From contig JAGBYM010000008.1 in assembly GCA_017628755.1 (NCBI GenBank), positions 1 to 40,195 of the forward strand: a DNA stretch of 40,195 bases, written 5' to 3'. The stretch is from Clostridia bacterium. GTDB taxonomy: Bacteria; Bacillota; Clostridia; Oscillospirales; CAG-272. The notes below the pieces were generated by a model. That model was given only the letters and a program-made list of their open reading frames with translations. It searched no databases and had not been told where the DNA came from. Shown here piece after piece: positions 8,154 through 39,819 of the stretch (its first letter is position 1; every line of letters starts with the position of its first letter). Position numbers and translations under genes: made by a program.

Positions 8154-8189
8154 TAAAATGTCCCCCTTTCTCATCGTCTTTCCGAAGTG

Positions 8190-10456: not shown

Positions 10457-10471
10457 CTCTTTATCACCCCT

Positions 10472-23056: not shown

Positions 23057-23128
23057 GGTGCAGTTTCCCCAAAATCGCAAAAGGAAGAACTTGCCTTCCT
23101 ATTATAACAAAAAAGGAAGTGATTGTCA

Positions 23129-24484
23129 ATGGATAACATTCTAAGAGTGGGTTTGATGTGTCGTGTGTCAACCGAGGAGCAAGCACTACACGGCGATTCT
23201 ATGCAAGCGCAAGAGGATTCCCTTGTCGCCTATGCAGCCGAACACCAAATGAAAATAGTCAATATCTACCGCGACGAGGGTTTTTCCGCACGAAAGCCCG
23301 TGCTTAAACGCCCAGCAATGCTTGAGCTTATCGAAGATGTAAAAGCCGGGAAAATTGATATCATCATTTTTACAAAGCTTGACAGATGGTTTAGAAATTT
23401 GGAACAGTATTATTCCGTTCAAAAGATCCTCGATAAACACGGCGTGGTATGGAAAGCCATATTAGAGGATTATAGCACCGCTTCAGCCGACGGAAGATTA
23501 AAGGTGAACATAATGCTTTCTGTTGCCGAGAACGAGGCGGACCGCACCTCAGAGCGTATCAAATTCGTATTCCAATCTAAAGTAATGCGTAAGGAAGCGA
23601 TCTTCGCAAACCACAGCACTCCCTTCGGTTACAAGGTGATTGAGATTGACGGAATAAATAGAGTTGTTAAAAACGAAGAACACAGAGAAGCCGTAGAATT
23701 CTTTTTCTCCAATGCATCGATATCATCAATAAGACAAGCCACGCTTATGACAAATGAAAAGTTCAATCTAAAACGAGATTATAAAGATTATCTGAAAATG
23801 TGCTATAACGATTTTTATACAGGAACATATAAAGGCGTTGAAAATTACTGCGAACCGTACCTAACGCCCCAGCAGTTTCAAGAGCTAAGCAAACCGAAAA
23901 CAGCAAGACAGCCACAGGGCAATAGAGTGTATCTGTTTTCCGGTCTTATCACTTGCCCCAAATGTGGTCGCAATATGGTAGCAAAGTCTAATAATCACCA
24001 TAGCAACAAAGAAATAGAATATCATTCCTATCGTTGCCCAAATTCTATCTCTAAACTTTGCAATACATCGGGTATAAGCGAGAAGCGTGTTGAAAAATAT
24101 GTTCTCGAAAACACAAGCAAGGAGCTTGAAAAATTCATCTTGAGCCACGAGGTGGCACAGTCAAAACCCAAGCAAAGATCCGACGTTGCAAAGCTTAAAG
24201 AACAGCTCCGCCGAGTGAACGTGTCATATCACGCTGGGAATATGGAAGATGCGGAATACCTTGCGGAAACAAAGCGCATTAAGACTATGATAGAGAAAGC
24301 GACCAAATTGGAAAATGCTGACTCCCCTGTTGATATCGAAGCGTTAAAAGATTTTCTCAACTCAGGCTTTGAAAAGATTTACGACTCGCTTGGCAAAGAA
24401 GAGCAGCAAAGGCTGTGGCGGTCAATCATTGACGAGCTGATTTATGACGGACACGATATTGTAGGAATCAAATTTAGAACTTAA
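23129..24484 (+). CDS. int: Large serine recombinase (phage integrase)
   Basis: ATG 23129 is preferred to TTG 23123 because GGAAGTGA is 6 bases before it, giving 451 aa. The catalytic domain starts L-R-V-G-L-M-C-R-V-S-T-E-E-Q, with nucleophile Ser14, and continues D-E-G-F-S-A-R and F-T-K-L-D-R-W-F-R-N. The recombinase domain carries a zinc ribbon (C-P-K-C-G-R-N, later C-P-N and C-N-T-S-G) and a coiled coil near residues 340-400. It would insert the phage genome into the host at a specific site and, with a directionality factor, excise it. No such factor was identified here. Confidence 0.93.
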   Translation: MDNILRVGLMCRVSTEEQALHGDSMQAQEDSLVAYAAEHQMKIVNIYRDEGFSARKPVLKRPAMLELIEDVKAGKIDIIIFTKLDRWFRNLEQYYSVQKILDKHGVVWKAILEDYSTASADGRLKVNIMLSVAENEADRTSERIKFVFQSKVMRKEAIFANHSTPFGYKVIEIDGINRVVKNEEHREAVEFFFSNASISSIRQATLMTNEKFNLKRDYKDYLKMCYNDFYTGTYKGVENYCEPYLTPQQFQELSKPKTARQPQGNRVYLFSGLITCPKCGRNMVAKSNNHHSNKEIEYHSYRCPNSISKLCNTSGISEKRVEKYVLENTSKELEKFILSHEVAQSKPKQRSDVAKLKEQLRRVNVSYHAGNMEDAEYLAETKRIKTMIEKATKLENADSPVDIEALKDFLNSGFEKIYDSLGKEEQQRLWRSIIDELIYDGHDIVGIKFRT

Positions 24485-24554: not shown

Positions 24555-24580
24555 AAAGCCCCCTAATTAAAGGGGGCTTT
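24555..24580 (+). terminator. Rho-independent terminator between convergent integrase and giant gene
   Basis: AAAGCCCCCT and AGGGGGCTTT form a perfect 10-bp stem with a 6-base AATTAA loop. On the plus strand TTGTTTT follows, as for a normal terminator of the integrase transcript. It may also act weakly on the late transcript arriving from the other side. Confidence 0.88.
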
Positions 24581-24584: not shown

Positions 24585-27500
24585 TTACTTGCCGAAATAG
24601 GCAATATAATCGGGATCGTCTTTCACGCTCTCGTATTCTATGCCAAGCAAGAATAAATATTCCTTGTAGCTATTGCACACAGAATTGAGATATCTTTCTA
24701 TTTTCTCTCTGCGTGAGCCGTTAATCGATTTTCCGTCTTGGTCTTTGTCAGCTTTGATATTATCCATTTCGACCGTTGCCGTTATATACAGCTTCGTATT
24801 GATGCCGAACTGTTCAGCTTCAATAGAATCCTCGTCCTCGTAGGTCGGAGCGCCTATACGCTGTAACGTGCGTTCAAGCGCTCTTTCCCTTGCGACGTTT
24901 TTAGCCGCCGTCAATATCTCAGCCTTGTCATCCGTTGACATATTGCTCGACATTGTTTCCTCTACTATTTCCCAATAGAGTCTTAAATAGTCGGTCTGAT
25001 ACTCAACGTACTGCACGTCTGAAAGATCGTGTTTTTCGCCTTTGCCGTCTTTTACTTCGCCTTGCATTACAGAAGGTAGATACTCCGTACTGCCCGTTTC
25101 AATACAAACGGCTTCAACGGCTTTCTGCCACTCCGTCTTGTACTCTCCGTCAATGCCCTTTTGATACTCTCGTATCATATCCAGCACGAGCTGGCGTGTA
25201 CCCCTTGCCGCAGTAGACTTGGAATCTTCTTTAGCCTTGCCGTAATACGTTCCGTAGAACTCGGTCATAAAGCTGTCCCATTTTGCCGCTATCGCCTTTT
25301 CCGTGTTATTGGGGTCGCTGTTCTTTGCCCGTTCGGTCGTATCCGCACGGTCATAAAGCCAATTCACGAGATCGGTGGAGTATTGGTTGTCTTTTACGTA
25401 GGTGTTGCCAACACCGAGAGTCCAATCTCGATTTTTCTCGCCGACGGGGAATAATGCTTTTTGAGTTTTTTGGAAACCACCAAACCACTGTTGAAGGACG
25501 TAGTCAACCTTTTCAGGACTCCAACCGAACGCTTGACCGAGCCAATACGCGATTTTGCTTGTTCGGTCTGTGTATTGGAATTTCGACTCAAGGTTTTGCA
25601 AGCCGCTCGCCACAATCGGTCTACCCAAGAAGTCGCGGTTAGCCGCAAGAGCAACAAAAGCCCCGAGCAAAGCCACGCTACTTGGTATATTATTTCCAAT
25701 TGCTACATCTGCGCCCAGCATAGGTATTTGTGCCAAATCGTTAATGATCGGAGGGAGGAAGTTTTCCGATGCATAGGTGTAAAACTCGTCAAATGCGTGA
25801 TCGTTTTCACCGATTACATATTCCAAACAACGTTCAAAGAATGAACTTAATACGCCTATTTCTCTCGGCTTAGGTGTGGCAAAATATTTGCCATCACCAA
25901 TAGGAAATACCCAATAACTATTTTTTGTGTAGGTCGAAAGCTGTTCGTAATCTTCTTCTTTTTCATCGTCGCTATAGTTAATAACGTGATGTATTATGGC
26001 GAGTGCGGCATTAACCGCCACATAAGATATTACACGCCCTCTGATCGCTTTTTTGCGTTCGGGTTTTCCCGCAAGCTCCTCCACGGTTATCCAACGACGG
26101 AACTTGTCAAGTCCCTGCACGCTTGCGTTGAAGAAAGGCACACCCATATTTACAAATTGGGACAATTCGCCACCTCTGCGGAAGTTGGTCGTTACATCCA
26201 TAGCTTCATAAAAAGCTTCTTGCGGCGTCATACCCGCTTCTCGCATCATCTTGTAAGTCGCAAATCTCGGTCCCGCTTCTATCAAGTCGGAGGCATAGCC
26301 GAGTAATTCAATGGGATTGGCATACTTTGCGGCTTTTTTCAGCTTCTTATCGCTCATTTGGCGAGCCAATTCCTTACGCATATCCCTTGTAAGTTTACGG
26401 TCTGCGGTGTATGCTGACGTTTTACCGCCGCCCATCGCAAGGAACTCCTTGTATAAGGGACTGGCACTATCGACTTTGAATTTGTTTAGATATGCCGAGC
26501 CTACGCCCTTTGCCATATGGATAACGTTTTTGTCCTTTGAGTAAGTGTAGAACGTGGCAAAGTCGCGAGGAAGGTTTGAGAATAGCGACCAACCGAGGTT
26601 TAGTCCTGTGGCGGTAGCCGTTACAAATCGCGTTGCAACAGCAAAAGCATACAAAACAGCATTCATTGTTTTAGGCGAAAGGCTCGTCAAGCTCTTAAAC
26701 AACTGAGGGTCGTTAATCTTCCAAGCCTGCGGCGTGCCGTTTTTCAATACCGTAATAACGGTATCTTTCGCGTGTCCTCTGCCGTACTGGAACAAGATAT
26801 CGTCAAGGTTGTTTACAACGCCCTCGGCTTTCTCCTTGCTCTTTTCGTCGAGGTCGCTTTCTTCGAGCCAATTGGTCAACTGATCTTTAACGCCTGTCAT
26901 ATCCATTTTTGCAACGGACAAAGGCATAGGCACTTTTTCAAGGATCGTGGCATCTGCACCGAGCTTTTCCGCGCTGTCGGCAATGGCAAGCATTACGTTG
27001 TTTCTCACGCCCGCATTTACCATTTTAACGATATTGTCTATAAGGTTATCTACGGGGTTGTAAATATCCTGTCCACCGCCCTTTGCCTTTTTAACGGTGC
27101 TGTTTTGGTTTGCAAAACCTCTCTTTGCTCCGTAATTGTTCTTGCCTTTTTCAACCGCACGATTGAACGGAACGTAGTATTCCCAGCGCTTTCCCCAGCT
27201 TTCAAGCATCGATGCAGAGATCAGTCCCGTATTGACGCCCCACGTCTTATAGAATTTCTTAATAAAGTCGTAAAGCCTTTCCGACACTTCCGCAAACTGA
27301 GGATACTGCGTTTCAAGCTCTGCTTGTCGGCGCTCCATAAATGCCGTGCTGTTCTTCCTATCGTCCGCGAATACTCGCATACCCTCTTTGAGTCGTTCGG
27401 GACCGTGCTTTACCACAAGGTATTCACCGAACAAACGATATTCTTCTTTATTGTTCAGATCTATGCCGTGTAGAACGGTTTTCAGTCCGGCAGAAACATA

Positions 27501-30500
27501 TTGTCCGTTTTTGTCGGTCAAATCGCCTGTGATAATCTGTCCCGCCATTGCATCGGAATACGCCGCGTTGCTCGCAAGCATATAGGCGTTGCTTCCCGTA
27601 GCTCTGTCAAAGAGTCTGATAGAGTGAATGCGATCAACCGTTGTCTGATATATGGCGCTTGCCGTGTCCTCCAGCTTTTCCACGGGAGTACGCAGGTCAA
27701 TACCGCCCTCCTCGCGGAGTCTGATAGAGCTTGTCGCTGTGTCCGCATCAAGAGAATAGTATGCATTCACATCGTCTGCGAGCTGTTCAAATCTTGCAAG
27801 GTCTTTAGCTGTGAAGCATTTGAGGAAGAAGTCAGTAAACAACGGATAGTCAATAGCTGCCGTCTCGCGGTTTTGCAAGAAACGTCTGATATACTCCGCT
27901 ACACCCTCGCGTATCAACTGCTCGTCGCTGTATTTCTCCGTAGCTACTGCCTCAAGGTGAGACTTAAGCTCCGTTGTCATTTCTTCGGTCAACTGCTCCT
28001 TAATGCCGAATGTTCTCTCAAAGTGATGTCCCAACTCGTGAGAAACAACGGGAAGGTTGTTAGCGATCTTCGTCTTTATGCCGCCGCTCTTAACGTCATA
28101 CTGACCGAGAACGCCCTTTCCGCGAATATGACCCGTAGTAATGTTGATACCGAAGTCGTGTTCGATTTCCGCAATGATCATGGACAAGCTCTTAGGCTTC
28201 TTGTTTTCGCCCACGCGAGACGTTGACCACATAGAATCGGGTTCAGCTTCGCCCTCGATAAAGGAGTCTGTATCATCATCCTCCTCGCCCACAACAACCT
28301 CACTCATATCAACCTCGGAAACGTTAATGCCGAGCTGTGTGTCGATATCGTTCAGTTTTGTCTGCAATTCGTCAAGCGCTTTTGCTTGCGGAAATTCTGC
28401 TTCAACTTCCTTTTTCAAGGTTTCGATTTCGGACTTGTAATTCTTTGCTGAAGCTTTTGCCGTTTCAAGTCCGCTCGGTATCTTTTCTACAGCATTGATA
28501 ATTCTCGTAATGTTACCAAGTGAGCTTTCGCCGCCGTCAACGACGTATTCTCTTGCGCCCTTGATAATATACTGTGTGCCTTTGGCTATGGTAGAGCTAT
28601 AGTACAGATCAAGCCCTTTATAACTACCCACCAACACTCTTGAGCCGTTTCGGGGAGCTTTGCTGATTGCTTTTTCAAGAGCTTTTGCAGCCTCTGCCCT
28701 CTCGGTAAACTTTGTTTTTCCGAAAGTTATTTCAAAGTCCTTTGTTTCGTTGGCAGAGATAGTTTTAATATCGGCTTCCGTGTCTGCGATTGTCTGCTCG
28801 ATCTTGCTTATTGTAGCGGGCAAGCGAGCCAATCTGTCTTTCATATCAAGCTTATCGGTATTGAATTTGTTACGGAGTGATTTGAGCTTATTCAGCTTAT
28901 CTTCAATCTCTATCTTTTCAAGCAATAAGGGGTTGCCCGATGCGATCGCTTTTGCTTCTCTCGCTGTAAGCTGGAAGTCGCTCATTTCTTCAAGCTCCTC
29001 AACCGTACCGCCCGACAACGCTTGATTGATAAACGCCGCTTTTCTCTCCTGCATCTGCCATTGATAGCTGTCGTAGGATTTTTCCTGTATGTAACGATAA
29101 ATGCGAATGTCTTTGTTCTCGTTGCCAAAACGGATAATTCTACCTTCTCGCTGTTCAATGTCTGACGGTCTGTAAGGTACGGTCATATGGTGCAACGCAA
29201 CAGCCTTGTTCTGTGCGTTCATACCCTCGCCCATTACAGCCGTAGAGCCTATAAGCACTCTTATTTCGCCCGTGTTTACTCTCGCGCTCAGCTCGGCTTT
29301 GTCCTCAAAGTCCTGTGCTACCGCGATTTCCTCTCTCGGAATACCGCCCGCAACAAGTCTATTGATCAAATCGCCGTAAACGTGGAGATTATATTTTTTG
29401 CCCGGATCTTCTCTTACACCTACGTCGCAGAATACAAACTGTGTGCCTTTTCGGTCATTGCTGTCGTTGTACTCCTTAATAACCTTTTCCGCAACTCGCA
29501 CTATTCTGCTGTTGGGTAAATTCAGCTCGTCTCTTGTGTACTTGCCGCCGAAATAAGACTCAACAAAGCGGAGATCCACCGCCGCCATTTGTCCCGCCGT
29601 CGTTACCTCAAGCATATTGTGCTGTGCGTTCTGCCCGCTACGTCTGATTTCGTCAATCATTTCATCAACAATATCAAGGAACTCCTCTTGAATATCGTTC
29701 GATTCGTTGATAACGTCAATTCTTTCGGCTTTCGGCAACTCTTGAATAACGTCGCCTGTCTTGAGAATGTCAGCCATTCGTCTGAACTGCTCAACCATTT
29801 GGGCAACGTTCTTGAATTTGGAGAATCGCTCTTTCATTCTAAACTTTCTGCCCGACGGGTCTACCTCTGCTTGGTTGACAATAGAGCCAAACATAGAAGC
29901 CCACGCATCAAACGATGCTATTCCCGAATCTGCCAATATGTCGGGTCTTAAGAACCTTATCATATTGTAGATTTCTGACATCGAGTTTGTAATAGGCGTT
30001 GCTGTGCCGAATGTAATTCTGCCGTTATTTCTGTTCAGATAGTCGGTTATCATAAACATATTTTCGGCGCGGCTTGCTCTCGTTTTGTTGTTGCTCTGAT
30101 TTACGGAAACGCCCGCAACTCTACTGAGCTTTGAATAGAACGGCAAGTTTTTGAAATTGTGAGCTTCATCGACAAACAAGCTGTCAACGCCAAGCTCCTC
30201 AAAAGTGTTGCCTATGTCCTTTGCGGACTCGGTGATCGCCTTTAGCTTTTCTTCAAGGCGTTTCTTTTGTGTTTCAAGCTGTCGGATAAATCTGCTGTCA
30301 ACGTTCTTTCCGCTGTCTTGCTGTGCCATTATCATAACTTCCTCAAGCTCTGCAAGCTGATTGGTTACAAACGCTGTCTTTGTGTCGTCCGACACGTCAA
30401 GCATACCGAAAGAAGAATGAGGAATAACAACTATATCAAAGTCATTCGCCGCAACTTGAGCATAGAAACGCTGTCTCTGAGAAGCGTTCGCGCCCTTTTC

Positions 30501-33500
30501 AAGCATAATAACCTTTGCCGAAGGATACATTTTCAGAATGTCGTTTCTGAAGTCAGCAACCTTGTGGTTAGGAACAACCATCATATTTTTCTTGGCTATT
30601 CCCATTCGCTTAAGCTCCATAGCTATAGCGATCATTTCAGCGGTTTTACCCGTACCAACGCCGTGAGCGAGGAGAGTATTGCCGTTGAATATAGCTCTTG
30701 CTACTGCTCGCTTTTGGTAGTCTCGGAGCTTGAATGTGTCTGTAAGTCCGTCAAAAGTAAGATATTTTGAAAGCTCGGAAAAGTCCATATTTCTATGAGA
30801 GTTAAATTTCTCATTGAAAGTGGTTACCAATTCCTGTCTGCGTTTAGCATCCTTAAAGCACCATTCCTCAAACGCCGCCTTAATGTCCTCCGCTTTCTGC
30901 TGCGCGGCTCTTGTCTCGCCAACAAGCACAACGCCTTCGCTATCCTTAACGACGATTTTACGCATATTAAGAGCTTTTTCGGCAAGCTTTATAGCATCTA
31001 TATACTTTGTGCCGTATTTGTGGGTCATAAGGGTAGTATCGCCCCACGTATCGCCCGATATGGTCCAAGTACCCGTCGTTGGGTCGTAGCTTACTGTAGG
31101 CTTGCGGTAGAGGTGGAGTGTTTCCGACAAGAAGTCAGCAACGTAGTTAGACGAGATCCACGGAGAGCCAAACTGCGGTGTGATGTTCTTCGCGGGAATA
31201 TCCTCGGGCATAACGTCTTTGAGCATCTGCTCGTTTTTCTCAAAGCCTTTTTTGCCCTTAACCGCTTCGTATTTTTCGCGGACGTTGCCCGATAAATAAA
31301 CCTCGTTAAGCTCGTACGTTCCGTCGGGAGTAAATACGATCCTGTCCTCTAACTGCTTGATTACCTCAGGAGCGGACAAGCCTGTAAGTTCGGATATTCG
31401 TCCTATGCTCACACCGCCCGATTCACCGATTGAAATACTCAAAGCATCGAGTGCGCTGTCAGCCTTTTTCGGCTTTCTCTTGCCGAGTGTGTCCTTTGTG
31501 AACATTTCGGACTTGATGATTGATTTTGTCTTGGTGTCGTACACTTCAAGTCCCGACAGCTTAACAAAATCGTTGTCAGCAGAAAGAACCTTTTTGTTCT
31601 TCTCCAAAGTGCCGTACTTCTTAACAAAGCCGTCGTAGCGAGTGTTAAGCTCTTTTCTGCGGCTCTCAATCACATCTACCCCTGCATCTGCCAAAGTGCT
31701 GTCAATAAGAGCTTGGTATGCCGTATTAAGCTGGATATATGCCTTTGCAACGTCGGCACTTTTGCCACTCAACTGCTTTACGTCGCCCGTCTGTGCGTCG
31801 ATGTACTCAACTGTTCCGTTTTCCTTTACAGTAAAGGTCTGCACAGCCGCAGTATTCTCCGTAACGTCAACACTTCCAACCGTCTGCGCTCCACTTAATA
31901 AGCCTTTGGGGAGCTTCTTTATCGCTTTGGCAAGCTGTTCAGCTACATCTCCTGTCGCTTTTACGTCAAGATCGTACTTTTTACTGAGGTAATTCCACTT
32001 CTCCGTAAGCTGTCCGATAATGTTTTCGGGGTGATTTACAAAGTATTCGTTGATAGAAAAGTCCTCGCCCCTAACATCCACGGTACCCAAGTTTGTAAAT
32101 CTTTCACCGCCCGGGGTTGTAGACTTCTGCATAATGATAAGGTCGGTCACAACGTTTGCACTCGCACTCTTGGTAAATACGCTTGAAGGCAAACGATAAG
32201 CCGCTATGAGTTTGCCTTGTCTTGCAAGCTCTGCCCTCGTTCTTTGGTCAATCTTGTCAAGCGTTCCGCGTGATGTTAAGAACACCATTACGCCGCCGTC
32301 GTTCAGCTTGTCCATAGCTTTAACGAAGAAATAGTCGTGTATCAAGTATTTGTTGTTCTTGTACTTATACTTAACCTCGCCAAAGGGAACGTTACCGATA
32401 ATAAGATCAAACGCACCGTCCTTGTATGCCACGTCTTGGAATGGCGATATTTCGATTTTCGCACTCGGGTACAAATGTTGTGCAATTCTTCCCGATATGG
32501 TGTCTATCTCTACGCCAAACAAAGAGGAATTGCCCTTGATTGACTTTGGCATTCTTCCGAAGAAGTTACCAACACCCATTGACGGCTCAAGAATATTGCC
32601 GCCCTCAAAGCCCAAATGTTCAAGCGCTTTATACACTCCGTCAATAATGTTTGTCGGTGTAAAATAAGCGTCGTTTACTGTGCTCTGTGCGGCAGAGATT
32701 TCCTCTGCGGTCATTATCTCTTTGAGCTGATCTCTATAACGCCAAAATGCGTTTGCAAGACCGCCCCAGCCCTTAAACCTTGCGAGTATACCCTGCTGTG
32801 CTTTCGTGGGCGCTTTGCCGCTTTTTTCAAGCTCCTGTAATACTTTAATAGCGGCAAGGTTGTCGTCAATGCTCGGTGCTTTGGTGTCAAGCTCCTCGGC
32901 TACCGCCTTTGTGATAGAAAAGTCTTTCGCTTTTAACTCATCGACATTATCATTTCCACGAGTTCCGACTCCGCTATCTCCATTGCCGTTGTCTGATTCT
33001 CGTACTCCGTTGTCGTTACTTCCGCTGTTGTCTGATCTTTCGGCAGACGATCCCGCTTCAGAACTTTGTACATTCCTTCCATTCTCGCCAGTGCCATTTT
33101 CGCCAAGCTGTCTATCCTCTGCTCCAACGTTCCGTTCTTCTTCAGCTTTCGGTACAGACTCGGATTGTCGTACTTCATTATCGTTGTTGCTTTCTCCGCC
33201 CAATATTCCTTTGTGAACATCGTTTATTTCTCCTTTGTTTGAAAAGTTCTTACGTTCTGCCTTAAACTGCTCGTGTATGGCTGAAAGCTCTTTGATATAC
33301 TCGTCAAAGTTATTAAAAGCATCAGGAATCCAGCCGTAATCATATTCAGCACTTTCGATAATTCCGCCTTTCCAAAGACCGTACACAAAAGCATTAAGTT
33401 CATCCAAGTACTTGATACTCTGTTCCTCGTCCAAACTCCCCAAGTCTAAAAGATTAATTTTTGTGTGTTCGTAGAGTTTATCATCAAGGCGTGCAGCTTC

Positions 33501-36368
33501 ATTACTGCGAAAGTTTAGTTTGTTCAAAGTATCGTCAATAAAGTCCACATAAAGTCGGAAATTATGCTGCTTCATTGCGTGAGTTGCTTCGTGTGGAAGA
33601 AGCGTAGGCACGGTATCCTCGTGAATGCTTTCGGAAACATACACTTCTCCGTTATAGGTGGTTGCGGGGGCTTTACGTTTCCAAGCATCAGCCTTGATAA
33701 TATGACATTTAATGCCATACTCCTTGAAGAAGGCTTGCTGTGCATTGTACAGTTCAGAGCCTTCAACAGGAGCGATACGATTCGCCTTGTCGGTGAGCCA
33801 CGAAGTACCACTTACTTCTCGTTGTTCTCCAATGTCTCTCCTATCAATGCTGTGAAGTTGTCGGCTTTCATTCGCTTCTTCCACAGTTTCCTGTACGCTG
33901 GATCCGTCGCCATTCTCTGATTGATTCTCTCCCTCGTTTCCAGATATGCTTGCTTCTGTTCCTCTGTGAGTATTAATTTCTTCTGCTCCGACATTAGTGT
34001 TCTCCTCCTTTGTATCGTTTCTGCCGTTACGCTTGTCTATTTCTGCCCATATAGCAGTAGCTTTTTCAACGGCTTCTTCTTCAGTTATTCCCGTTCTTTC
34101 TTGTATAACCTTTGCCGCTTTTTCCACTCTTTCGTCGGTTTCAGCGGTTTTACTTGCTGGTAACTTGCTGGTAACTTGCACACCGTACTCGCCCGTATTT
34201 ACGAGATCGCGTAGGTGTTCGTCAACCTCACTCCACGAGAATACACGAACATTGCCCTTGTAATTGTCTATCTTAAGCCCCTTTGCATCGTGTGAGGTGT
34301 AACCTCTCGTGCCGTCGGCAAGGGTGATAGTCTGCCCGCCAATTCCATATTCTTTCTTAAGGAACTCTATCGCTTCGGCTTTGCTCGGGTTTCCGCTGTA
34401 GAACTCGGCAACACGCTGTTTGCCGTCCACAAATCCCGTACCCAATTTAAGCACGTTGTCAAATTCGGTCTCGGGTGTGGGTTTGACGCTCGCCTGTTCA
34501 CTTACATTATATTGCTTTTCTACCGCGTTTTCGTTAACATTTTGTAAATTTTTCTCGGAGGGCATATTTTTTATATGCTCCATACGACCCGCGGTGTATG
34601 CTTCTTCCTGTGCTTCGGTTGTAAGGTTTACTTGTTCTCTCGGCACGTTCTGTCTGCCCGCATCAAACGCCGCCTTGTTCGCGTTCTCGTCGGCAATTGC
34701 CTTTTCCCTCGCGGTTTCCTCTAAAACGCTCTGCAATTCCGTATCGCTCATATAGGGATTTTCGGGCGTTTTAAGCGTTGTTTCCTCAATGGCGGGTGTT
34801 TGTTCGTCGTCGCTCTCAAATGTTACTTGTGGCTCGGTTTTGCTCGTCTGCGTGCCGTTTCTCTCGTTCACAACGTCCATAGCCGCCTTTTCAAGCGTGT
34901 CGGGTTCGGCTTGGGTCTGTTTGTTCTGATTTTCAACCACTATCGTCGTTACAGCCTTGCCAATTTCAACGTCGCTGATTTTCTCGCCCGCTTCTTGCTT
35001 TTCCTGTAACTGTGTTGCGATCTTGTGTGATTCGCTTTCGGGAGCAGATTCAAGCCCCGCCTTGATAACCTCGTCAACCTTAGAGGAGAATGCCGTGCCG
35101 ATTTCTTTATAGTTTTTGTTATTAACGGCATTTTGGAGTTTTCTGTTCGCAATGCTGGTCGTGATATTGTATGTTGCAGAAGGTACGTTCATTGCACCGA
35201 ACGAAAGTGTAGAAGACAGTGCAGTTTCGCCAAGTCTCTTGCCGATCTCCCCGGCATTGTACGCCCATTCGCCTTTGTCAAATCGACTTGCAAGCGATGT
35301 TCCGCCAATGGTAACAAGTTCCTGCACCAATTCCTGTCCCGTTTCCTTCGCTACGCTGATACCTCTCTTAGCCAATTCCTTTAGGATAGTTTTCAGCACG
35401 GTATCGGACGCACCGCTTTTGTTGAGTATTTTGAAGCCTTTTACCAATTCGTCAACCTGCATCACCTCAAGCGCCGCATTAACTCCACCAACGCCAAGCG
35501 CAATTGCTTTGGCAGTAGGCTCGGAAACGCCAAGTTCAAGCATTTCGTTATAGGCGTGTCCAGCTTCAATTTCAAGTGCATTTGCCGCCGCAGATGATGT
35601 ATAACCAGCTCCCAAGCCAACCAACGCCGCCGCGGGAAGCGTAACCACTTCCTCTGGCAATGCTACTTGCGGTCCCGCCTGTCCAGCCGCACCAGCGGCA
35701 AGCATCGCCGTACCAGCTCCCGCCACCATCATTTTGGCAGTGTCGGGATCTCTTAACGTATACCACTGCTGACCAAGCTGTTCCATAGCTCCCGAAATGG
35801 CTTTTTCATACCATTTGTCAGTTTCAAACTGATACTTGTCTTGAGCCAATGTTTCCTTGATCGCATCTGCCGAGTTTGCTTCTCCAAACATACTTTTGTA
35901 TGTTTCCACGCCATAGAGTGAGTTTTGATAGCCACGGGAAAACGAATTTGCAAATAAATCTTTCCAAGTAGCATCACGCAGAGGAAGCGAGCCGTTCTCC
36001 AAAAAATAACTATAATCGTCGGGTGTTTCAAACTGATTCCAAAACTCTCCCGCCGACTCAAACGTGGAAATGCTGTCGTTAAGCGATTTATATGTTTCCT
36101 CGTCTAACGTGTTGCGGTTTGTCTCAGTCCACGCCTTAATTGATTTCGCTCTTGAGCTTAAATCTTTCCAAGTATTATAGCCGTTTTCATCGGCTTTTGT
36201 GTTGCTGAGAAAGTTGCCCGCGTCTGCAAAGAAGGTGTTGATATACTCGCCGTTTACGTTCAGTCCTCTTTCCTGTTCGTAACGATCTCGGAAGCTACTG
36301 CTCGAAGAAACAGGGGTGTTGCCCTGTTTCTCCTTTTCGTTGTTGTATCTATCCTTAAATACGCCCAT
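24585..36368 (-). CDS. Giant polyvalent protein: zincins, DNA methylase-like, SNF2-like helicase, LPD38-like C-terminus (3927 aa)
   Basis: An AAGGAGG site precedes ATG 36368. In order I see: a Gly/Ala-rich hydrophobic stretch at about 209-306; an ICE-type domain near 642-723 (F-L-K-K-E-Y-G-I-G-G-Q); a first zincin with H-E-A-T-H at 926-930; a methylase-like domain with motif I E-P-S-M-G-V-G-N at 1261-1268 and N-V-P-F at 1326-1329 in place of N-P-P-Y; an SNF2-type helicase with G-V-G-T-G-K-T at 1903-1909, D-E-A-H at 2067-2070, T-A-T-P near 2120 and Q-R-E-G-R at 2406-2410; coiled coils; a second zincin H-E-L-G-H-H at 2777; and an LPD38-like region near 3230-3560. Such large polyvalent proteins are thought to be injected with DNA to counter host defences. 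Its virion-block location supports packaging in the particle. Confidence 0.85.
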   Translation of the reverse strand: MGVFKDRYNNEKEKQGNTPVSSSSSFRDRYEQERGLNVNGEYINTFFADAGNFLSNTKADENGYNTWKDLSSRAKSIKAWTETNRNTLDEETYKSLNDSISTFESAGEFWNQFETPDDYSYFLENGSLPLRDATWKDLFANSFSRGYQNSLYGVETYKSMFGEANSADAIKETLAQDKYQFETDKWYEKAISGAMEQLGQQWYTLRDPDTAKMMVAGAGTAMLAAGAAGQAGPQVALPEEVVTLPAAALVGLGAGYTSSAAANALEIEAGHAYNEMLELGVSEPTAKAIALGVGGVNAALEVMQVDELVKGFKILNKSGASDTVLKTILKELAKRGISVAKETGQELVQELVTIGGTSLASRFDKGEWAYNAGEIGKRLGETALSSTLSFGAMNVPSATYNITTSIANRKLQNAVNNKNYKEIGTAFSSKVDEVIKAGLESAPESESHKIATQLQEKQEAGEKISDVEIGKAVTTIVVENQNKQTQAEPDTLEKAAMDVVNERNGTQTSKTEPQVTFESDDEQTPAIEETTLKTPENPYMSDTELQSVLEETAREKAIADENANKAAFDAGRQNVPREQVNLTTEAQEEAYTAGRMEHIKNMPSEKNLQNVNENAVEKQYNVSEQASVKPTPETEFDNVLKLGTGFVDGKQRVAEFYSGNPSKAEAIEFLKKEYGIGGQTITLADGTRGYTSHDAKGLKIDNYKGNVRVFSWSEVDEHLRDLVNTGEYGVQVTSKLPASKTAETDERVEKAAKVIQERTGITEEEAVEKATAIWAEIDKRNGRNDTKEENTNVGAEEINTHRGTEASISGNEGENQSENGDGSSVQETVEEANESRQLHSIDRRDIGEQREVSGTSWLTDKANRIAPVEGSELYNAQQAFFKEYGIKCHIIKADAWKRKAPATTYNGEVYVSESIHEDTVPTLLPHEATHAMKQHNFRLYVDFIDDTLNKLNFRSNEAARLDDKLYEHTKINLLDLGSLDEEQSIKYLDELNAFVYGLWKGGIIESAEYDYGWIPDAFNNFDEYIKELSAIHEQFKAERKNFSNKGEINDVHKGILGGESNNDNEVRQSESVPKAEEERNVGAEDRQLGENGTGENGRNVQSSEAGSSAERSDNSGSNDNGVRESDNGNGDSGVGTRGNDNVDELKAKDFSITKAVAEELDTKAPSIDDNLAAIKVLQELEKSGKAPTKAQQGILARFKGWGGLANAFWRYRDQLKEIMTAEEISAAQSTVNDAYFTPTNIIDGVYKALEHLGFEGGNILEPSMGVGNFFGRMPKSIKGNSSLFGVEIDTISGRIAQHLYPSAKIEISPFQDVAYKDGAFDLIIGNVPFGEVKYKYKNNKYLIHDYFFVKAMDKLNDGGVMVFLTSRGTLDKIDQRTRAELARQGKLIAAYRLPSSVFTKSASANVVTDLIIMQKSTTPGGERFTNLGTVDVRGEDFSINEYFVNHPENIIGQLTEKWNYLSKKYDLDVKATGDVAEQLAKAIKKLPKGLLSGAQTVGSVDVTENTAAVQTFTVKENGTVEYIDAQTGDVKQLSGKSADVAKAYIQLNTAYQALIDSTLADAGVDVIESRRKELNTRYDGFVKKYGTLEKNKKVLSADNDFVKLSGLEVYDTKTKSIIKSEMFTKDTLGKRKPKKADSALDALSISIGESGGVSIGRISELTGLSAPEVIKQLEDRIVFTPDGTYELNEVYLSGNVREKYEAVKGKKGFEKNEQMLKDVMPEDIPAKNITPQFGSPWISSNYVADFLSETLHLYRKPTVSYDPTTGTWTISGDTWGDTTLMTHKYGTKYIDAIKLAEKALNMRKIVVKDSEGVVLVGETRAAQQKAEDIKAAFEEWCFKDAKRRQELVTTFNEKFNSHRNMDFSELSKYLTFDGLTDTFKLRDYQKRAVARAIFNGNTLLAHGVGTGKTAEMIAIAMELKRMGIAKKNMMVVPNHKVADFRNDILKMYPSAKVIMLEKGANASQRQRFYAQVAANDFDIVVIPHSSFGMLDVSDDTKTAFVTNQLAELEEVMIMAQQDSGKNVDSRFIRQLETQKKRLEEKLKAITESAKDIGNTFEELGVDSLFVDEAHNFKNLPFYSKLSRVAGVSVNQSNNKTRASRAENMFMITDYLNRNNGRITFGTATPITNSMSEIYNMIRFLRPDILADSGIASFDAWASMFGSIVNQAEVDPSGRKFRMKERFSKFKNVAQMVEQFRRMADILKTGDVIQELPKAERIDVINESNDIQEEFLDIVDEMIDEIRRSGQNAQHNMLEVTTAGQMAAVDLRFVESYFGGKYTRDELNLPNSRIVRVAEKVIKEYNDSNDRKGTQFVFCDVGVREDPGKKYNLHVYGDLINRLVAGGIPREEIAVAQDFEDKAELSARVNTGEIRVLIGSTAVMGEGMNAQNKAVALHHMTVPYRPSDIEQREGRIIRFGNENKDIRIYRYIQEKSYDSYQWQMQERKAAFINQALSGGTVEELEEMSDFQLTAREAKAIASGNPLLLEKIEIEDKLNKLKSLRNKFNTDKLDMKDRLARLPATISKIEQTIADTEADIKTISANETKDFEITFGKTKFTERAEAAKALEKAISKAPRNGSRVLVGSYKGLDLYYSSTIAKGTQYIIKGAREYVVDGGESSLGNITRIINAVEKIPSGLETAKASAKNYKSEIETLKKEVEAEFPQAKALDELQTKLNDIDTQLGINVSEVDMSEVVVGEEDDDTDSFIEGEAEPDSMWSTSRVGENKKPKSLSMIIAEIEHDFGINITTGHIRGKGVLGQYDVKSGGIKTKIANNLPVVSHELGHHFERTFGIKEQLTEEMTTELKSHLEAVATEKYSDEQLIREGVAEYIRRFLQNRETAAIDYPLFTDFFLKCFTAKDLARFEQLADDVNAYYSLDADTATSSIRLREEGGIDLRTPVEKLEDTASAIYQTTVDRIHSIRLFDRATGSNAYMLASNAAYSDAMAGQIITGDLTDKNGQYVSAGLKTVLHGIDLNNKEEYRLFGEYLVVKHGPERLKEGMRVFADDRKNSTAFMERRQAELETQYPQFAEVSERLYDFIKKFYKTWGVNTGLISASMLESWGKRWEYYVPFNRAVEKGKNNYGAKRGFANQNSTVKKAKGGGQDIYNPVDNLIDNIVKMVNAGVRNNVMLAIADSAEKLGADATILEKVPMPLSVAKMDMTGVKDQLTNWLEESDLDEKSKEKAEGVVNNLDDILFQYGRGHAKDTVITVLKNGTPQAWKINDPQLFKSLTSLSPKTMNAVLYAFAVATRFVTATATGLNLGWSLFSNLPRDFATFYTYSKDKNVIHMAKGVGSAYLNKFKVDSASPLYKEFLAMGGGKTSAYTADRKLTRDMRKELARQMSDKKLKKAAKYANPIELLGYASDLIEAGPRFATYKMMREAGMTPQEAFYEAMDVTTNFRRGGELSQFVNMGVPFFNASVQGLDKFRRWITVEELAGKPERKKAIRGRVISYVAVNAALAIIHHVINYSDDEKEEDYEQLSTYTKNSYWVFPIGDGKYFATPKPREIGVLSSFFERCLEYVIGENDHAFDEFYTYASENFLPPIINDLAQIPMLGADVAIGNNIPSSVALLGAFVALAANRDFLGRPIVASGLQNLESKFQYTDRTSKIAYWLGQAFGWSPEKVDYVLQQWFGGFQKTQKALFPVGEKNRDWTLGVGNTYVKDNQYSTDLVNWLYDRADTTERAKNSDPNNTEKAIAAKWDSFMTEFYGTYYGKAKEDSKSTAARGTRQLVLDMIREYQKGIDGEYKTEWQKAVEAVCIETGSTEYLPSVMQGEVKDGKGEKHDLSDVQYVEYQTDYLRLYWEIVEETMSSNMSTDDKAEILTAAKNVARERALERTLQRIGAPTYEDEDSIEAEQFGINTKLYITATVEMDNIKADKDQDGKSINGSRREKIERYLNSVCNSYKEYLFLLGIEYESVKDDPDYIAYFGK
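32933..33220 (-). CDS. Nested +1-frame ORF inside giant gene (95 aa)
   Basis: The ORF lies wholly inside the giant gene, one base out of frame, over its low-complexity Asn/Gly/Ser/Glu linker (giant residues about 1050-1146) between the first zincin and the methylase-like domain. AGGAG lies nine bases before its ATG. The product looks like a real protein: M-F-T-K-E-Y-W-A-E-K-A, then P-S-L-Y-R-K-L-K-K-N-G-T-L-E-Q-R-I and an acidic helical end M-E-I-A-E-S-E-L-V. It loosely resembles TnpV-type proteins of mobile elements; that likeness is weak. Confidence 0.6.
   Translation of the reverse strand: MFTKEYWAEKATTIMKYDNPSLYRKLKKNGTLEQRIDSLAKMALARMEGMYKVLKRDRLPKDQTTAEVTTTEYENQTTAMEIAESELVEMIMSMS
33812..33994 (-). 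CDS. Nested +1-frame ORF inside giant gene (60 aa)
   Basis: The ORF is in the same +1 frame as the 95-aa ORF and covers giant residues about 792-853, a polar linker before the first zincin domain. AGGAGG lies nine bases before its ATG, close to the ideal ribosome binding site. The product is a balanced, charged helical protein: T-E-E-Q-K-Q-A-Y-L-E-T-R-E-R-I-N-Q-R-M, then D-P-A-Y-R-K-L-W-K-K-R-M-K-A. It does not look like a chance shadow frame. Function is unknown. Confidence 0.6.
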   Translation of the reverse strand: MSEQKKLILTEEQKQAYLETRERINQRMATDPAYRKLWKKRMKADNFTALIGETLENNEK

Positions 36369-36380: not shown

Positions 36381-37892
36381 TTACCATCCAAAGAGTGTCC
36401 CATTTGCAATACCAAGCTTTTGCTGCAATTCCTGAATAAGATTTGTCGCTTCAGATTTTTTCATATTTTCTGCAACCAATTTATTTCTGAGTTCGTTAAG
36501 CGTCATACTTTCACCGTTTGGAGCTATTACAACTGCGTTTCTGTCAATTCCAAACAGATTTCCGCCGCCTGTGCCGCCTTTGATGGCGTCAGTATCAACT
36601 TCCCAGCCTTTAGTGCTCTTTACCATTTCGCTGTATGTATCCTTCTCGTTGTAGTCCACATAGTTAGAATACAATTTGTCGCCTTCGTCAACTCCTATCT
36701 CGCCAGAATCAACAAGACCGGCAATATAAGAGAAAAGCTCGTTGTTGTTTGTAATCGAAGCGGCTTTGTTCTTGATCTCATCGGTAATGCCCTTATAGCC
36801 GTTATTGTCATTATCGTCAAAATCGTATTTCGGAGTGCTGTTATCTTCGTCTTTAGCTGCAGACTGTTCGTTTGCGTCCCATTCCTTGTTCGTCCAATAA
36901 TCTTTATAGGCGAAATCTCGATCGTCTACGGCTTTGTTATAATTGAACGATGTTTCCCAATTGCCCTGATTTACCGCATCCGTGAACGCTCCGTAAGCAA
37001 AGTCCTTGTCTGCTCTCCAGTCGTTCATCGTGTCTCGGAATCGGTCGTACTGCCGATCGTCCATGCCCGTGAGAATACCCAAGTCCTCCACCTTGCTTTC
37101 CTTGTCCTGTAAATACATTTCATAGGCAAGCTGATACAGTTCGGGAATCCTGTCGTTGAGCTGTGAAGCGTAATAGTTCCTCGCTTGCTGTGCCGCCGCT
37201 ATAGCGTATGTGTTCATACCGCCAGCGCCCGCCGCCGCTTCCGCGAGTGTTTCTCTCATAGCTCTGTCGCCCTCTCGGTTGTACATTGTCTTGAATTGAG
37301 CGTACAACGGGTCGTTCTCGGCGTTATAGGAGAAGTCCTCGCGTGTCAGTATCTCGTTGAGCAAGGCGTCAATCTGAGGATCGTATTTGCCAGTGTAGGT
37401 GGGCTGTTCGTTGTTTTTGTTGTAGTTTTCATCCCACGAGAGAATGTCATTTGCGCTAAGTCCCGTGGAGGCAGAAGTCGGCGCTACTTCGGAATATGCA
37501 TTCATTAAAGCTTCTATCTGTGCTAACGCTTCTGCGGACAAGCCCGCATCGTCAGAAGTGCCAAGCGGAGTATATGTGTTTTCTGTTACGGCTGACGTAC
37601 TTGTCGGTGTGCTCGTGGCAGATGTGCCGTTGTTGATAATGCCCATTTGGTTGTTCTTCAACGGCGCTCTTATGTTTCCGATATCTCCGTCGGCTGTAGC
37701 CTGATACATATTGTCGTTCAGCGCGTTTTTCGTAGGTATAGCTGTGCCAGCACCGCCATACGACGCCTTAGCTTGAGCGAGTGTCTGCAATTGATTTTTC
37801 GCCCATGTCTGCTCGCCCGCGTTGCCTGTCTTGATTAGATTATTAAGGTGTTTTTCTTTGTCGTCCCAATCTGTATTTTTGTTGTAAGACAT
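36381..37892 (-). CDS. Virion structural or ejection protein candidate (503 aa)
   Basis: The internal ATG at 37892 (MSYNKNTDW) is preferred because an A/G-rich run including eight G residues precedes it, while ATG 37916 overlaps the upstream stop. The N-terminal third is polar and Thr/Ser-rich. The middle has helices with A-L-A-E-A-A-A-G-A-G-G-M-N-T-Y and A-I-A-A-A-Q-Q-A-R-N-Y-Y, and the end resembles a linker to a helical hairpin. It lies directly before the giant gene, so it may be an internal protein ejected with it. Confidence 0.55.
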   Translation of the reverse strand: MSYNKNTDWDDKEKHLNNLIKTGNAGEQTWAKNQLQTLAQAKASYGGAGTAIPTKNALNDNMYQATADGDIGNIRAPLKNNQMGIINNGTSATSTPTSTSAVTENTYTPLGTSDDAGLSAEALAQIEALMNAYSEVAPTSASTGLSANDILSWDENYNKNNEQPTYTGKYDPQIDALLNEILTREDFSYNAENDPLYAQFKTMYNREGDRAMRETLAEAAAGAGGMNTYAIAAAQQARNYYASQLNDRIPELYQLAYEMYLQDKESKVEDLGILTGMDDRQYDRFRDTMNDWRADKDFAYGAFTDAVNQGNWETSFNYNKAVDDRDFAYKDYWTNKEWDANEQSAAKDEDNSTPKYDFDDNDNNGYKGITDEIKNKAASITNNNELFSYIAGLVDSGEIGVDEGDKLYSNYVDYNEKDTYSEMVKSTKGWEVDTDAIKGGTGGGNLFGIDRNAVVIAPNGESMTLNELRNKLVAENMKKSEATNLIQELQQKLGIANGTLFGW

Positions 37893-37915
37893 AATTAAAT
37901 CCCCCCCCTTTACCA

Positions 37916-38287
37916 TTACTCACCGCCATTGGTGAGATGTGAATGCTCGGTGATTACTAACTCTCCCGAGTCGTTTAGATATAACATTGGTTTGCCTTCC
38001 GCGCCCTTGAGAGTGAACTCAAATTTTTTGTCCGAGTTTGTGCCTACGGAGAACACTTCGCCCTTTGCTCCTGTCAGCTTCATATAAGAGCCTATGACTG
38101 CGTTTCCCGAAGCAGACGAAATAACCGTATGGTCCGTGTCGATCTCGTCTATGTTTCGGCTGTCAAGGTGGAGCAGAACGTATTCCAATTGCTCTTGGAG
38201 ATACCGAACGTGGTTGCACAGTTTGTTTATTGCTTCTTGCGGATTTGCTGGATCAATCTTCGGCAACGAATTTGAGAATATAGCCAT
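37916..38287 (-). CDS. Small structural protein with coiled coil and beta tail (123 aa)
   Basis: The first 50 residues form a coiled coil (A-I-N-K-L-C-N-H-V-R-Y-L-Q-E-Q-L-E-Y-V), and the second half is beta-rich (Y-M-K-L-T-G-A-K-G-E-V-F, Y-L-N-D-S-G-E-L-V-I-T). This layout suits a trimeric tail needle or connector appendage. The gene is coupled to both neighbours by overlapping start and stop codons. Confidence 0.55.
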   Translation of the reverse strand: MAIFSNSLPKIDPANPQEAINKLCNHVRYLQEQLEYVLLHLDSRNIDEIDTDHTVISSASGNAVIGSYMKLTGAKGEVFSVGTNSDKKFEFTLKGAEGKPMLYLNDSGELVITEHSHLTNGGE

Positions 38288-39819
38288 TAAACATCACTCC
38301 CTACTGTAAATTCACGGCTGAATGACTTGATTGTGCATTCGCCCCCGCCGCGTAGCCGTATATCAATGCTGTCGCACCTCGTCGGCATTATCGGTATGCT
38401 GACCGTCTTTGCCTTTTCGTTGTGCGTTGTGTAAACCTGTCGCCACTGCGGATCGTTATCCGTCTTTATGTCAAGCGCAAGCCACGCCCCCGCTGACAAG
38501 TCCATACGCAAGTGGAATTTTGAATATCCTTTGCGTTCGTTAATTGTTTCGTGCATCGTGGCAAACGTAGCACCCCACTCAATATCCGTGCGATCTGCAG
38601 TTTTATCTATGTAGTATAAGCCGCCCTCGGAATCAACGTAGTGTACGCTTCCGTCATAGAATGCCATATCAACGGCGTGGGTATCGTCCTCGCGTAGCCA
38701 AATGTTTTTTGCCACGTCATAAGCAAACAGGCTGTAGTTGTCCCCCTGCTTCATTGATATGTAGTAGGTTTCGCCGTCGCAACACGCCACAGCATCCGAA
38801 TATCGCTTGTTGCCAAGCTTTTCGCTGAGAAGCTCGGGTACACCGCCCGTATAAGAATAAATGCCGCCTACGCCCTTATATAAGAGCTGTTCGTTTACGA
38901 TGTGCATACTTCTTTCGCTTCCCTTCTGTACTCCGTAAACGTTCGCGGTGTGGATTTGGAAATTGCTCGGCTTTGTTCCGTACAGCTTGTGTACCGTGTT
39001 CTCCTTGAAAAAGCAAATGTGTGAGGAGTATGGAATACAGCCAGTAAATTCGCCCTCGCTACCAACCTCTATCTCGTAGCTGTTGTCTGCCAAGCCGTCA
39101 AGCACTGCAAAATTGAGAGGATCAGAAAACTTACTGCCGTAAATCTTGTTTCCGTGCGTTCCCCAAAGTCTATAATTGCTCTCGCAAATAAAGTCAAGGT
39201 CGGGAATCTCACGCTTGATCGTTACCTCTCCGCTTTCCGTTCCTGCCGCAAATGAGTTTTCGTAAAACGTAAGCGCCTTGCCGGAAACGCTATCGATGAT
39301 TATGGTTTGGTTGTTTTCCGCTTTGGAACACCCCGTGATCTTTACCGCATCGCCCTCTCGGAATTTGAAATCATCGCCCGTTGTGGTGATAGTCGAATCG
39401 GTAAACACAAGCCCCGTAGCCGTGTATGTTTCTTCCATACTGCCAAATTCGCCGTCAGAATCATCGTCTGTCGGCACTTTGTAATACTTCTTGTCGGGGA
39501 ATATTACAATATAATTGCCTATTGTGGCGGTCTGTTTCTTGCCCGCCTTTACTGTTCCTACCTCTTTGTTGCCGTATAATACCTTTGTTTCGTCTATGAG
39601 GAGCAATTTACCCTTAGCGTGCAAGGTGGAAGGGGCTGTATATTGCCCCTTCTTTATTCTTGCCGCCCTCTGCGTTATACAAGGATATTTATCCGTGGAA
39701 AGATTGTGTGTATCGGCAAATTCGCCGTCTTGCGCTCCCTCTCCGTAGTTGATACCACGAAAGGAAACGTTGTATTTTTTTGAGGTGTTCTGCACCTCTG
39801 AAAGAAAAGGTAGCATCAT
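38287..39819 (-). CDS. Tail hub/nozzle beta-propeller-like protein (510 aa)
   Basis: ATG 39819 has AAGGAGGT. The protein is almost all beta strand with repeated Y/W-rich blades (N-Y-R-L-W-G-T-H-G-N-K-I-Y, H-I-C-F-F-K-E-N-T-V-H-K-L-Y-G, G-G-I-Y-S-Y-T-G-G, G-G-L-Y-Y-I-D-K). This is the character of P22 gp10-type stabilisation or nozzle proteins in short tails. Its start (F-R-G-I-N-Y-G-E-G-A-Q-D-G-E-F) resembles conserved phage proteins of that type. Its position before the ejection candidates supports a tail-tube closing role. Confidence 0.58.
   Translation of the reverse strand: MMLPFLSEVQNTSKKYNVSFRGINYGEGAQDGEFADTHNLSTDKYPCITQRAARIKKGQYTAPSTLHAKGKLLLIDETKVLYGNKEVGTVKAGKKQTATIGNYIVIFPDKKYYKVPTDDDSDGEFGSMEETYTATGLVFTDSTITTTGDDFKFREGDAVKITGCSKAENNQTIIIDSVSGKALTFYENSFAAGTESGEVTIKREIPDLDFICESNYRLWGTHGNKIYGSKFSDPLNFAVLDGLADNSYEIEVGSEGEFTGCIPYSSHICFFKENTVHKLYGTKPSNFQIHTANVYGVQKGSERSMHIVNEQLLYKGVGGIYSYTGGVPELLSEKLGNKRYSDAVACCDGETYYISMKQGDNYSLFAYDVAKNIWLREDDTHAVDMAFYDGSVHYVDSEGGLYYIDKTADRTDIEWGATFATMHETINERKGYSKFHLRMDLSAGAWLALDIKTDNDPQWRQVYTTHNEKAKTVSIPIMPTRCDSIDIRLRGGGECTIKSFSREFTVGSDV

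What the first reader, a model, noticed from the sequence alone, without database searches (positions are those of the whole stretch)
24585..36368. 3927-aa polyvalent virion protein with two zincins, a methylase-like and a helicase domain
One uninterrupted frame joins two HExxH sites (926 and 2777), a methylase motif I with an altered N-V-P-F catalytic motif, a complete SNF2-type helicase and an LPD38-like end. The family (polyvalent proteins of phages and conjugative elements) is known, but this domain order in a 40-kb short-tailed phage is extreme: the gene is almost 30 percent of the genome. The altered methylase motif suggests DNA binding without methylation, or an unusual target.
Basis: partly seen in the sequence, partly recalled or inferred. 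Interest (0 to 1): 0.85.

Follow-up and report, generated by a model that had tools for sequence, protein, structure and literature searches.

The report
Giant DarB-like phage polyvalent protein
A short-tailed-type phage carries one enormous gene for a multi-tool protein of a known kind that is probably packed into the virus particle and injected with the DNA to shield it from bacterial defences; its supposedly broken methylase motif is normal for the family.

Summary
The 3927-aa frame is real (minus strand, 36368 to 24585) and holds what was described: HExxH sites at 926 and 2777, a TaqI-like N6-adenine methylase core, an SNF2 ATPase and an LPD38 domain. It is a DarB-like polyvalent protein, last gene of the late operon of a temperate, podovirus-like phage.

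It is not extreme. Vibrio podophage VvAW1 has the order methylase-SNF2-zincin-LPD38 in a 3640-aa gene filling 28% of 38.7 kb, and 57 of 79 IMG/VR relatives have frames of at least 3000 aa. The podophage relative JC1 gp69 was found in virions (published).

The 'altered' N-V-P-F is ordinary: P1 DarB, the archetype, has it, and all 163 sequences compared keep N-x-P-F (x = V 115, P 38, W 5, I 5). It does not argue for loss of methylation. Packaging, cleavage and methylation of this protein are untested.

Less expected: from about residue 1100 on the protein is close to its two nearest relatives, while the first ~1000 residues, including the first zincin, are largely exchanged between them, with the change at a low-complexity linker. 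Verdict: new member of a known kind.

The parts
24585..36368 (-). the 3927-aa DarB-like polyvalent protein gene
34509..36368 (-). residues 1-620, N-terminal part; one hydrophobic 19-mer at 235-253; pieces 215-322 and 411-501 resemble parts of other large phage proteins (phrog_28077 3.6e-7, phrog_22978 2.6e-8)
   Evidence: near background against the relative L003
34176..34472 (-). residues 633-731, small domain with EYGIGG (phrog_38613), matched in 54 of 80 bacterial-genome and 10 of 79 viral DarB-like frames
33234..33806 (-). residues 855-1045, first zincin-like cassette; HEATH 926-930, likely third ligand in DELN 989-992
   Evidence: motif support only
32949..33233 (-). residues 1046-1140, acidic low-complexity linker; boundary between variable N-part and constant part
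32733..32921 (-). residues 1150-1212, LPD36-like region with GWGG (GxGU motif) at 1200-1203
   Evidence: definition from PMC5512222
31923..32732 (-). residues 1213-1482, N6-adenine MTase core; YFTPT 1235-1239, motif I 1261-1270, NVPF 1326-1329
28929..30821 (-). residues 1850-2480, SNF2-type ATPase
27729..28301 (-). residues 2690-2880, second zincin; HELGH 2777-2781 and EGVAEY 2821-2826
25419..27731 (-). residues 2880-3650, 'mid' region plus LPD38 (Pfam 3471-3639), phage-type tail
24555..24580 (.). terminator-like hairpin between the convergent polyvalent and integrase genes
   Evidence: 3 terminator-like sites in 24200-24900, all at this hairpin; 0.6 expected
36381..37916 (-). 511-aa gene directly upstream, relative in the same place in IMG/VR contig G225
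37916..38287 (-). 123-aa gene, relative in the same place in G225
38287..39819 (-). phrog_511 'internal virion protein'
6143..11890 (-). major head protein, phrog_13908 protein, portal and large terminase, beginning of the late block
23123..24484 (+). serine integrase, convergent with the polyvalent gene

Best explanation
It is a DarB-like polyvalent protein of a temperate, short-tailed-type phage. Proposed working: it is made late, packed in the head or ejection apparatus, and enters the next cell with the DNA. There the methylase-SNF2 unit holds the entering double-stranded DNA, moves along it using ATP, and protects it in cis from type I-like restriction, most likely by methylating adenines. 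The two zincin domains cut the chain into working pieces at assembly or after entry; the low-complexity linker at 1046-1140 is the likeliest cut site. The C-terminal LPD38 part ties it to the virion. Shown here: gene, domains, family, conserved motifs, late-operon position. From published relatives: packaging and restriction protection. Inferred only: methylation, translocation, cleavage, and that this protein itself is packaged.
For: Homology: PHROG 'DarB-like antirestriction' over 846-2698; P1 DarB aligns to the MTase (2e-26) and SNF2 segments; VvAW1 gp01 aligns over 1133-3649, BcepIL02 gp70 over 1058-2679 and 3201-3632. Late operon: terminase, portal, phrog_13908 protein, MCP, tail-type genes, phrog_511, 123-aa, 511-aa, then this gene last, in the same order in IMG/VR G225; N4's 3500-aa virion RNA polymerase lies at the same end of its late genes. 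LPD38 and zincin 2 occur in 29 and 22 of 79 viral and 0 of 80 bacterial-genome DarB-like frames; Iyer et al. list LPD38 as phage-type only (PMC5512222 passages). JC1 gp69 was detected in virions by 51 unique peptides (PMC9144972 passages); P1 DarB is packaged by an N-terminal signal (PMC9024508 passages). Catalytic residues: 163 of 163 keep N-x-P-F; 25 of 25 zincin-2 relatives (a few are copies of one contig or phage) keep HExxH and ExxAE. Selection: pN 0.066-0.069 for the ATPase and 0.11-0.153 for the MTase against pS 0.54-0.79. Type I HsdR over the family cut-off is in 5 of 39 genomes searched, one of the host's genus.
Against: No direct evidence of packaging, cleavage, methylation or protection for this protein. 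BLAST found no match to P1 DarB residues 1-68, where its packaging signal lies. P1's mechanism is unsettled: a 2025 review gives physical obstruction as a hypothesis and says the exact mechanism is unclear (PMC12707154 passages), and a plasmid-borne darB effect on EcoKI did not need the protein (PMC11109961 passages). The host draft genome's own HsdR matches are all below the cut-off. HHalign of zincin 2 with the N4 zincin gave only 5.5% probability. The T-P motif named by Iyer et al. is present here but only in 43 of 159 relatives.
Confidence: 0.6

Rival explanations
1. Roadblock without methylation: the MTase fold binds entering DNA but does not methylate; the SNF2 motor and bound protein physically keep restriction complexes off.
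For: A review gives physical obstruction as a hypothesis for P1 Dar and notes its cis-only action (PMC12707154 passages). Pfam shows no target-recognition domain between methylase and ATPase.
Against: N, P and F of motif IV are kept in 163 of 163, motif I is well kept, and the MTase segment is under purifying selection. NVPF also occurs in rRNA methyltransferases (PMC6787224 passage).
Confidence: 0.25
2. Genome-internalisation motor: the protein is chiefly an ejection protein whose SNF2 ATPase helps draw the DNA into the cell; protection from restriction is secondary.
For: Last gene of the late block, with a phrog_511 'internal virion protein' close by; N4 encodes a giant virion enzyme at the same position.
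Against: The same MTase-SNF2 unit is common outside this phage type: 345 plasmid records hold a place covering at least 80% of residues 850-2700 (some may be phage-plasmids), and none of the 80 bacterial-genome frames has LPD38.
Confidence: 0.1
3. Not a virion protein: an ordinary non-packaged late protein acting in the producing cell.
For: No proteomics was found or run for this phage.
Against: Packaged relatives JC1 gp69 and P1 DarB; phage-type LPD38 tail.
Confidence: 0.05

Closest known systems
Vibrio podophage VvAW1 gp01 (YP_007518343, 3640 aa)
   Same: Methylase, SNF2, zincin (HEMAH), LPD38 in the same order; end of a colinear late gene block; 28% of a 38.7-kb genome; short-tailed particle.
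   Different: 29% identity; NPPF instead of NVPF; only one HExxH; no BLAST match to residues 1-1132 of the window protein; no integrase identified by its authors.
Bcep22-like podophage DarB proteins (BcepIL02 gp70 4667 aa, JC1 gp69 4515 aa)
   Same: BcepIL02: methylase-SNF2 unit, LPD38, and one HExxH between ATPase and LPD38. JC1's protein is in virions.
   Different: BcepIL02: 30% identity, NPPF, larger; the zincin-2 profile did not match it. JC1's sequence was not aligned on its own.
Phage P1 DarB (2255 aa)
   Same: Methylase with the identical NVPF, then SNF2 ATPase; packaged.
   Different: No HExxH, no LPD38 match; 23-34% identity; a myophage with five other Dar proteins.
IMG/VR contigs L002 and L003 (uncultured phages)
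   Same: 73% (774-3844) and 68% (1044-3908) identity, including zincin 2 and LPD38; L003's contig has the same late gene order.
   Different: First ~1000 residues largely unlike; L002 carries a different HExxH domain (HEAFH) in the slot, L003 has none there.
Clostridium clostridioforme LM41 prophages phi1 and phi4
   Same: Podovirus-like 41-kb prophages with an 8-kb ORF at the 3' end, almost 20% of the genome, likened by the authors to large polyvalent proteins (PMC11318856 passages).
   Different: Not aligned here; smaller.
Phage N4 virion RNA polymerase (3500 aa)
   Same: Giant gene at the end of the late genes; published as packaged and as containing a zincin.
   Different: RNA polymerase instead of methylase-ATPase; alike in manner at most, not a member.

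Membership tests
Polyvalent proteins (Iyer et al. 2017) | Two or more biochemically unrelated domains in one polypeptide | tested here: met
   Methylase, SNF2, LPD38 by profile; zincins by motif
Polyvalent proteins (Iyer et al. 2017) | Encoded among late/packaging genes of a phage or transfer genes of an element | tested here: met
Polyvalent proteins (Iyer et al. 2017) | Transferred into the recipient with the DNA | not testable with these tools
   needs virion proteomics or an injection assay
DarB-like methylase-helicase dyad | LPD36 with GxGU (U = G, A, S) N-terminal to the methylase | tested here: met
   GWGG at 1200-1203; 157 of 159 relatives fit GxG[GAS]
DarB-like methylase-helicase dyad | T-P motif before the methylase core | tested here: met
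   YFTPT at 1235-1239; but T-P is in only 43 of 159 relatives, T-S in 96
DarB-like methylase-helicase dyad | Motif IV written as NPP(Y/F) in the founding paper | tested here: not met
   NVPF here; the archetype P1 DarB also has NVPF and 115 of 163 rows have V, so this wording is a description that the archetype itself fails and is not taken as defining
DarB-like methylase-helicase dyad | SNF2-clade ATPase fused C-terminal to the methylase | tested here: met
DarB-like methylase-helicase dyad | Protects own DNA in cis from type I restriction | not testable with these tools
   reported for P1
Zincin (MPTase) domain, second site | HExxH plus downstream Glu helix | tested here: met
   25 of 25 relatives, copies included; profile matches a solved zincin (2l0r) at 5.7e-4; Pfam gave nothing convincing
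Zincin (MPTase) domain, first site | HExxH plus downstream Glu in a zincin fold | tested here: inconclusive
   HE[AG]TH and DE[LI]N in all 5 sequences that span them, 4 of them distinct; no zincin among PDB matches, Pfam M48 only 0.031
N4-like virion RNA polymerase | T7-like RNA polymerase module | tested here: not met
   no such Pfam or PHROG match

The most novel reading that the evidence does not exclude
The DarB-type methylases with N-[V/I]-P-F are not degenerate N6-monomethylases but make another product, N6,N6-dimethyladenine, in the entering phage DNA. A published passage (PMC6787224) gives (A/S/N)(L/I/V)P(Y/F) as motif IV of dimethylating RNA or DNA N6 enzymes and (N/D)PP(Y/F/W) as that of monomethylating ones; both states occur in this one family (V 115, I 5, P 38, W 5). 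Such a mark would be a new phage DNA modification and a new way round restriction. Against it, from the same passage: PikR1, reported as monomethylating, also has NVPF, and the named enzymes act on RNA.
Probability: 0.04. Interest if true: 0.85.

Novelty: new member of a known kind. Interest (0 to 1): 0.3.

Why it matters
It removes a false lead (a 'dead' methylase) and leaves a testable point: the archetypal anti-restriction protein DarB and most relatives compared here carry N-V-P-F, not the NPP(Y/F) written in the founding paper, and how DarB protects DNA is still unsettled in print. The comparison with L002 and L003 also shows a constant DNA-handling part with an exchangeable N-terminal part, which makes the modular idea of polyvalent proteins visible between close relatives.

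Tried and rejected
Rejected: (a) that size or share of the genome is extraordinary; (b) that NVPF marks loss of activity; (c) that a HExxH on both sides of the methylase-ATPase is unique: L012 (same contig as L002) has HEAFH before and HELGH after, L064 HEAGH and HELGH, L059 two before and one after; L019 (HEIEH) and L043 (HENPH) also have one before, which may be chance; (d) an N4-type RNA polymerase.

Led nowhere: HHalign of zincin 2 against the N4 zincin (5.5%) and against zincin 1 (0.2%); solved-structure search with zincin 1 (one irrelevant hit); PHROGs and Pfam on the 511-aa and 123-aa neighbours.

Limits: the genome-contig scan used a pattern with N[VP]P, so its V/P ratio is biased, and whether its loci are prophages or other elements was not determined; the viral scan did not use motif IV. 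L012 and L013 are the same contigs as L002 and L003. The tree has 163 rows (79 viral, 80 genome, window, P1 DarB, VvAW1, BcepIL02), 158 different; P1 DarB has a very long branch, so its place is unsure. Frames cut by locus ends lower the counts. Contig lengths were typed for 37 of the 79 viral loci. In the phages collection only residues 850-2700 and 3000-3927 were searched. PHROGs was run on 27 window proteins; some small ORFs (3454-3738, 8190-8513 and others) were left out. Whether the constant/variable split is already in print was not searched for.

Full report
Observation. The window is contig C131 (40,195 bases, whole) of a 2.43-Mb, 170-contig draft genome, 72.7% complete. The gene lies on the minus strand, 36368 to 24585, ATG start behind AAGGAGG, 3927 codons, no stop. 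Chance would give a longest run of about 250 codons.

Domains. Pfam: LPD38 (2.7e-33), SNF2-rel_dom (2.7e-11), ResIII (1.5e-6), Eco57I methylase (3.1e-5, 24.6 bits against a cut-off of 25.3), Helicase_C (0.0004, below its cut-off). PHROGs: DarB-like antirestriction over 846-2698. Against solved structures the methylase segment best matches M.TaqI (single sequence 3.5e-6, profile 1.6e-9), with NVPF on TaqI's NPPY. The ATPase best matches ISWI and other SNF2 remodellers. The second HExxH domain best matches a zincin (2l0r, 5.7e-4); Iyer et al. tied the N4 zincin to the same superfamily (passage). The first HExxH domain has no zincin among its PDB matches; in the 5 sequences that span it, 4 of them distinct, HE[AG]TH and DE[LI]N are kept.

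Methylase motif. P1 DarB, translated from NC_005856.1, reads VVGNVPFGG around residue 180. All 163 sequences compared (79 viral, 80 genome, 4 references with the window) keep N-x-P-F: V 115, P 38, W 5, I 5. On a quick maximum-likelihood tree, with that position masked, the states need 10 changes against a mean of 44 in 200 shuffles, so the state is inherited in blocks. Among the 79 viral rows, whose scan did not use this motif, V is in 37, P in 35, W in 5, I in 2. The host's own KsgA has NLPY. A library search for 'NVPF' with 'methyltransferase' gave one paper; in its passages PikR1 and PikR2 carry NVPF, and (A/S/N)(L/I/V)P(Y/F) is given as the motif of dimethylating RNA or DNA N6 enzymes, although PikR1 was reported as monomethylating (PMC6787224). 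Iyer et al. write the family motif as NPP(Y/F) (PMC5512222, section 14 read whole); the archetype does not fit that wording. The motif is no evidence of lost activity; whether these proteins methylate remains untested.

Size and order. VvAW1 gp01 is 3640 aa in 38,682 bases and aligns over 1133-3649; its paper calls it a DNA methylase and describes a short, non-contractile tail (PMC3558961 passages). In the viral set 57 of 79 frames have at least 3000 aa and 43 at least 3900. A HExxH on both sides of the dyad recurs in L012, L064 and L059. A Clostridium clostridioforme study reports 41-kb podovirus-like prophages whose 8-kb 3' ORF is likened to large polyvalent proteins (PMC11318856 passages).

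Context. On the minus strand the late genes run large terminase, portal, phrog_13908 protein, major head protein, tail-type genes, then across the contig ends the phrog_511 protein, a 123-aa and a 511-aa gene, and last the polyvalent gene; the late genes that have relatives in IMG/VR contig G225 stand in the same order there. A terminator-like hairpin at 24555-24580 lies between it and a convergent serine integrase; a Cro/C1-type regulator gene is at 21983-22429. Among the 27 proteins scanned no tape-measure match appeared; the one match to a family labelled tail sheath (phrog_15433, 1.4e-7) lies in the collagen-like part of 1617-3017 and stands among tail-fibre families, so I do not read it as a sheath. 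'Podovirus-like' rests on this and on the relatives. Because phage genes continue on both sides of the integrase and the contig ends fall within late genes, the sequence looks like the unintegrated, circularly permuted form (inference).

Constant and variable parts. Against L002 and L003 identity per 100 residues is 63-95% from 1101 to 2700 and 51-85% from 2701 to 3800; from 3801 it falls to 37% and 48%. Over residues 1-1000 it is 28.4% for L002 (shuffled mean 19.7) and 17.7% for L003 (shuffled mean 14.9, highest 16.7); L002 shares about 401-730. The slot before the linker holds HEATH here, a different HEAFH domain in L002 and no HExxH in L003. The same first zincin stands before a methylase and SNF2 unit in IMG/VR record G226 (L171, L173; no LPD38 match in that record), before a methylase in L172 (identical zincin; the stretch held ends before any ATPase match), and in a frame of the host's own genus without a methylase match in the stretch held (L009). 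So zincin 1 looks like a travelling cassette with the linker at 1046-1140 as the seam.

Phage-type and other relatives. Zincin 2 is in 22 and LPD38 in 29 of 79 viral frames and in 0 of 80 bacterial-genome frames; the EYGIGG domain goes the other way, 10 of 79 and 54 of 80. The window protein joins a domain commonest in the bacterial-genome loci to a phage-type tail.

Function. Packaging is published for JC1 gp69 (51 unique peptides) and P1 DarB (passages). P1 Dar acts in cis and its mechanism is called unclear in a 2025 review (passages); a plasmid darB effect on EcoKI was due to DNA sites, not protein (passages). Type I HsdR over the cut-off is in 5 of 39 genomes (own genome included, where matches stay below it), one of the host's genus. 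Purifying selection is strong on ATPase and methylase in both pairwise comparisons, though synonymous sites are near saturation. I favour injected, cis-acting DNA protection with an active methylase, at 0.6.

Verdict. Confirmed observation, correct family, two over-readings removed; new member of a known kind.

Noticed in passing
window 3-1445 (-) and 39927-40193 (-): Both contig ends cut a gene: weak InlB-type repeat matches near the 3' side of the first, a C-terminal part of DUF6273 (2.6e-6) in the second. They may be one fibre- or adhesin-like gene split by the assembly, so the genome may be circular and only slightly incomplete.
   Followed up: partly
window 19572-20207 (-): Separate MT-A70 type adenine methylase (Pfam 2.3e-27) with intact DPPW in the early genes.
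   Followed up: partly
window 18421-18966 (-): Mu Gam-like end-protection protein (phrog_2205), between exonuclease and NinB-type genes.
   Followed up: no
window 1617-3017 (-): Tail-type protein whose first 105 residues have relatives directly before the phrog_511 gene in two IMG/VR contigs; collagen-like matches further on.
   Followed up: partly
L009: A genome of the host's genus has a 2754-aa frame sharing the first zincin (51-53% identity) with no methylase match in the 3690 bases held.
   Followed up: partly
phage hits H26, H27 and plasmid hit H51: Records annotate a retron-type or group II intron reverse transcriptase under the joined DarB-like match, so these genes may carry an inserted intron.
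   Followed up: no
L171 and L173: The polyvalent frame of IMG/VR contig 3300022661_002141 runs off one contig end and is taken up at the other, with a shared stretch of the zincin on both, suggesting a circular 45.7-kb phage.
   Followed up: partly
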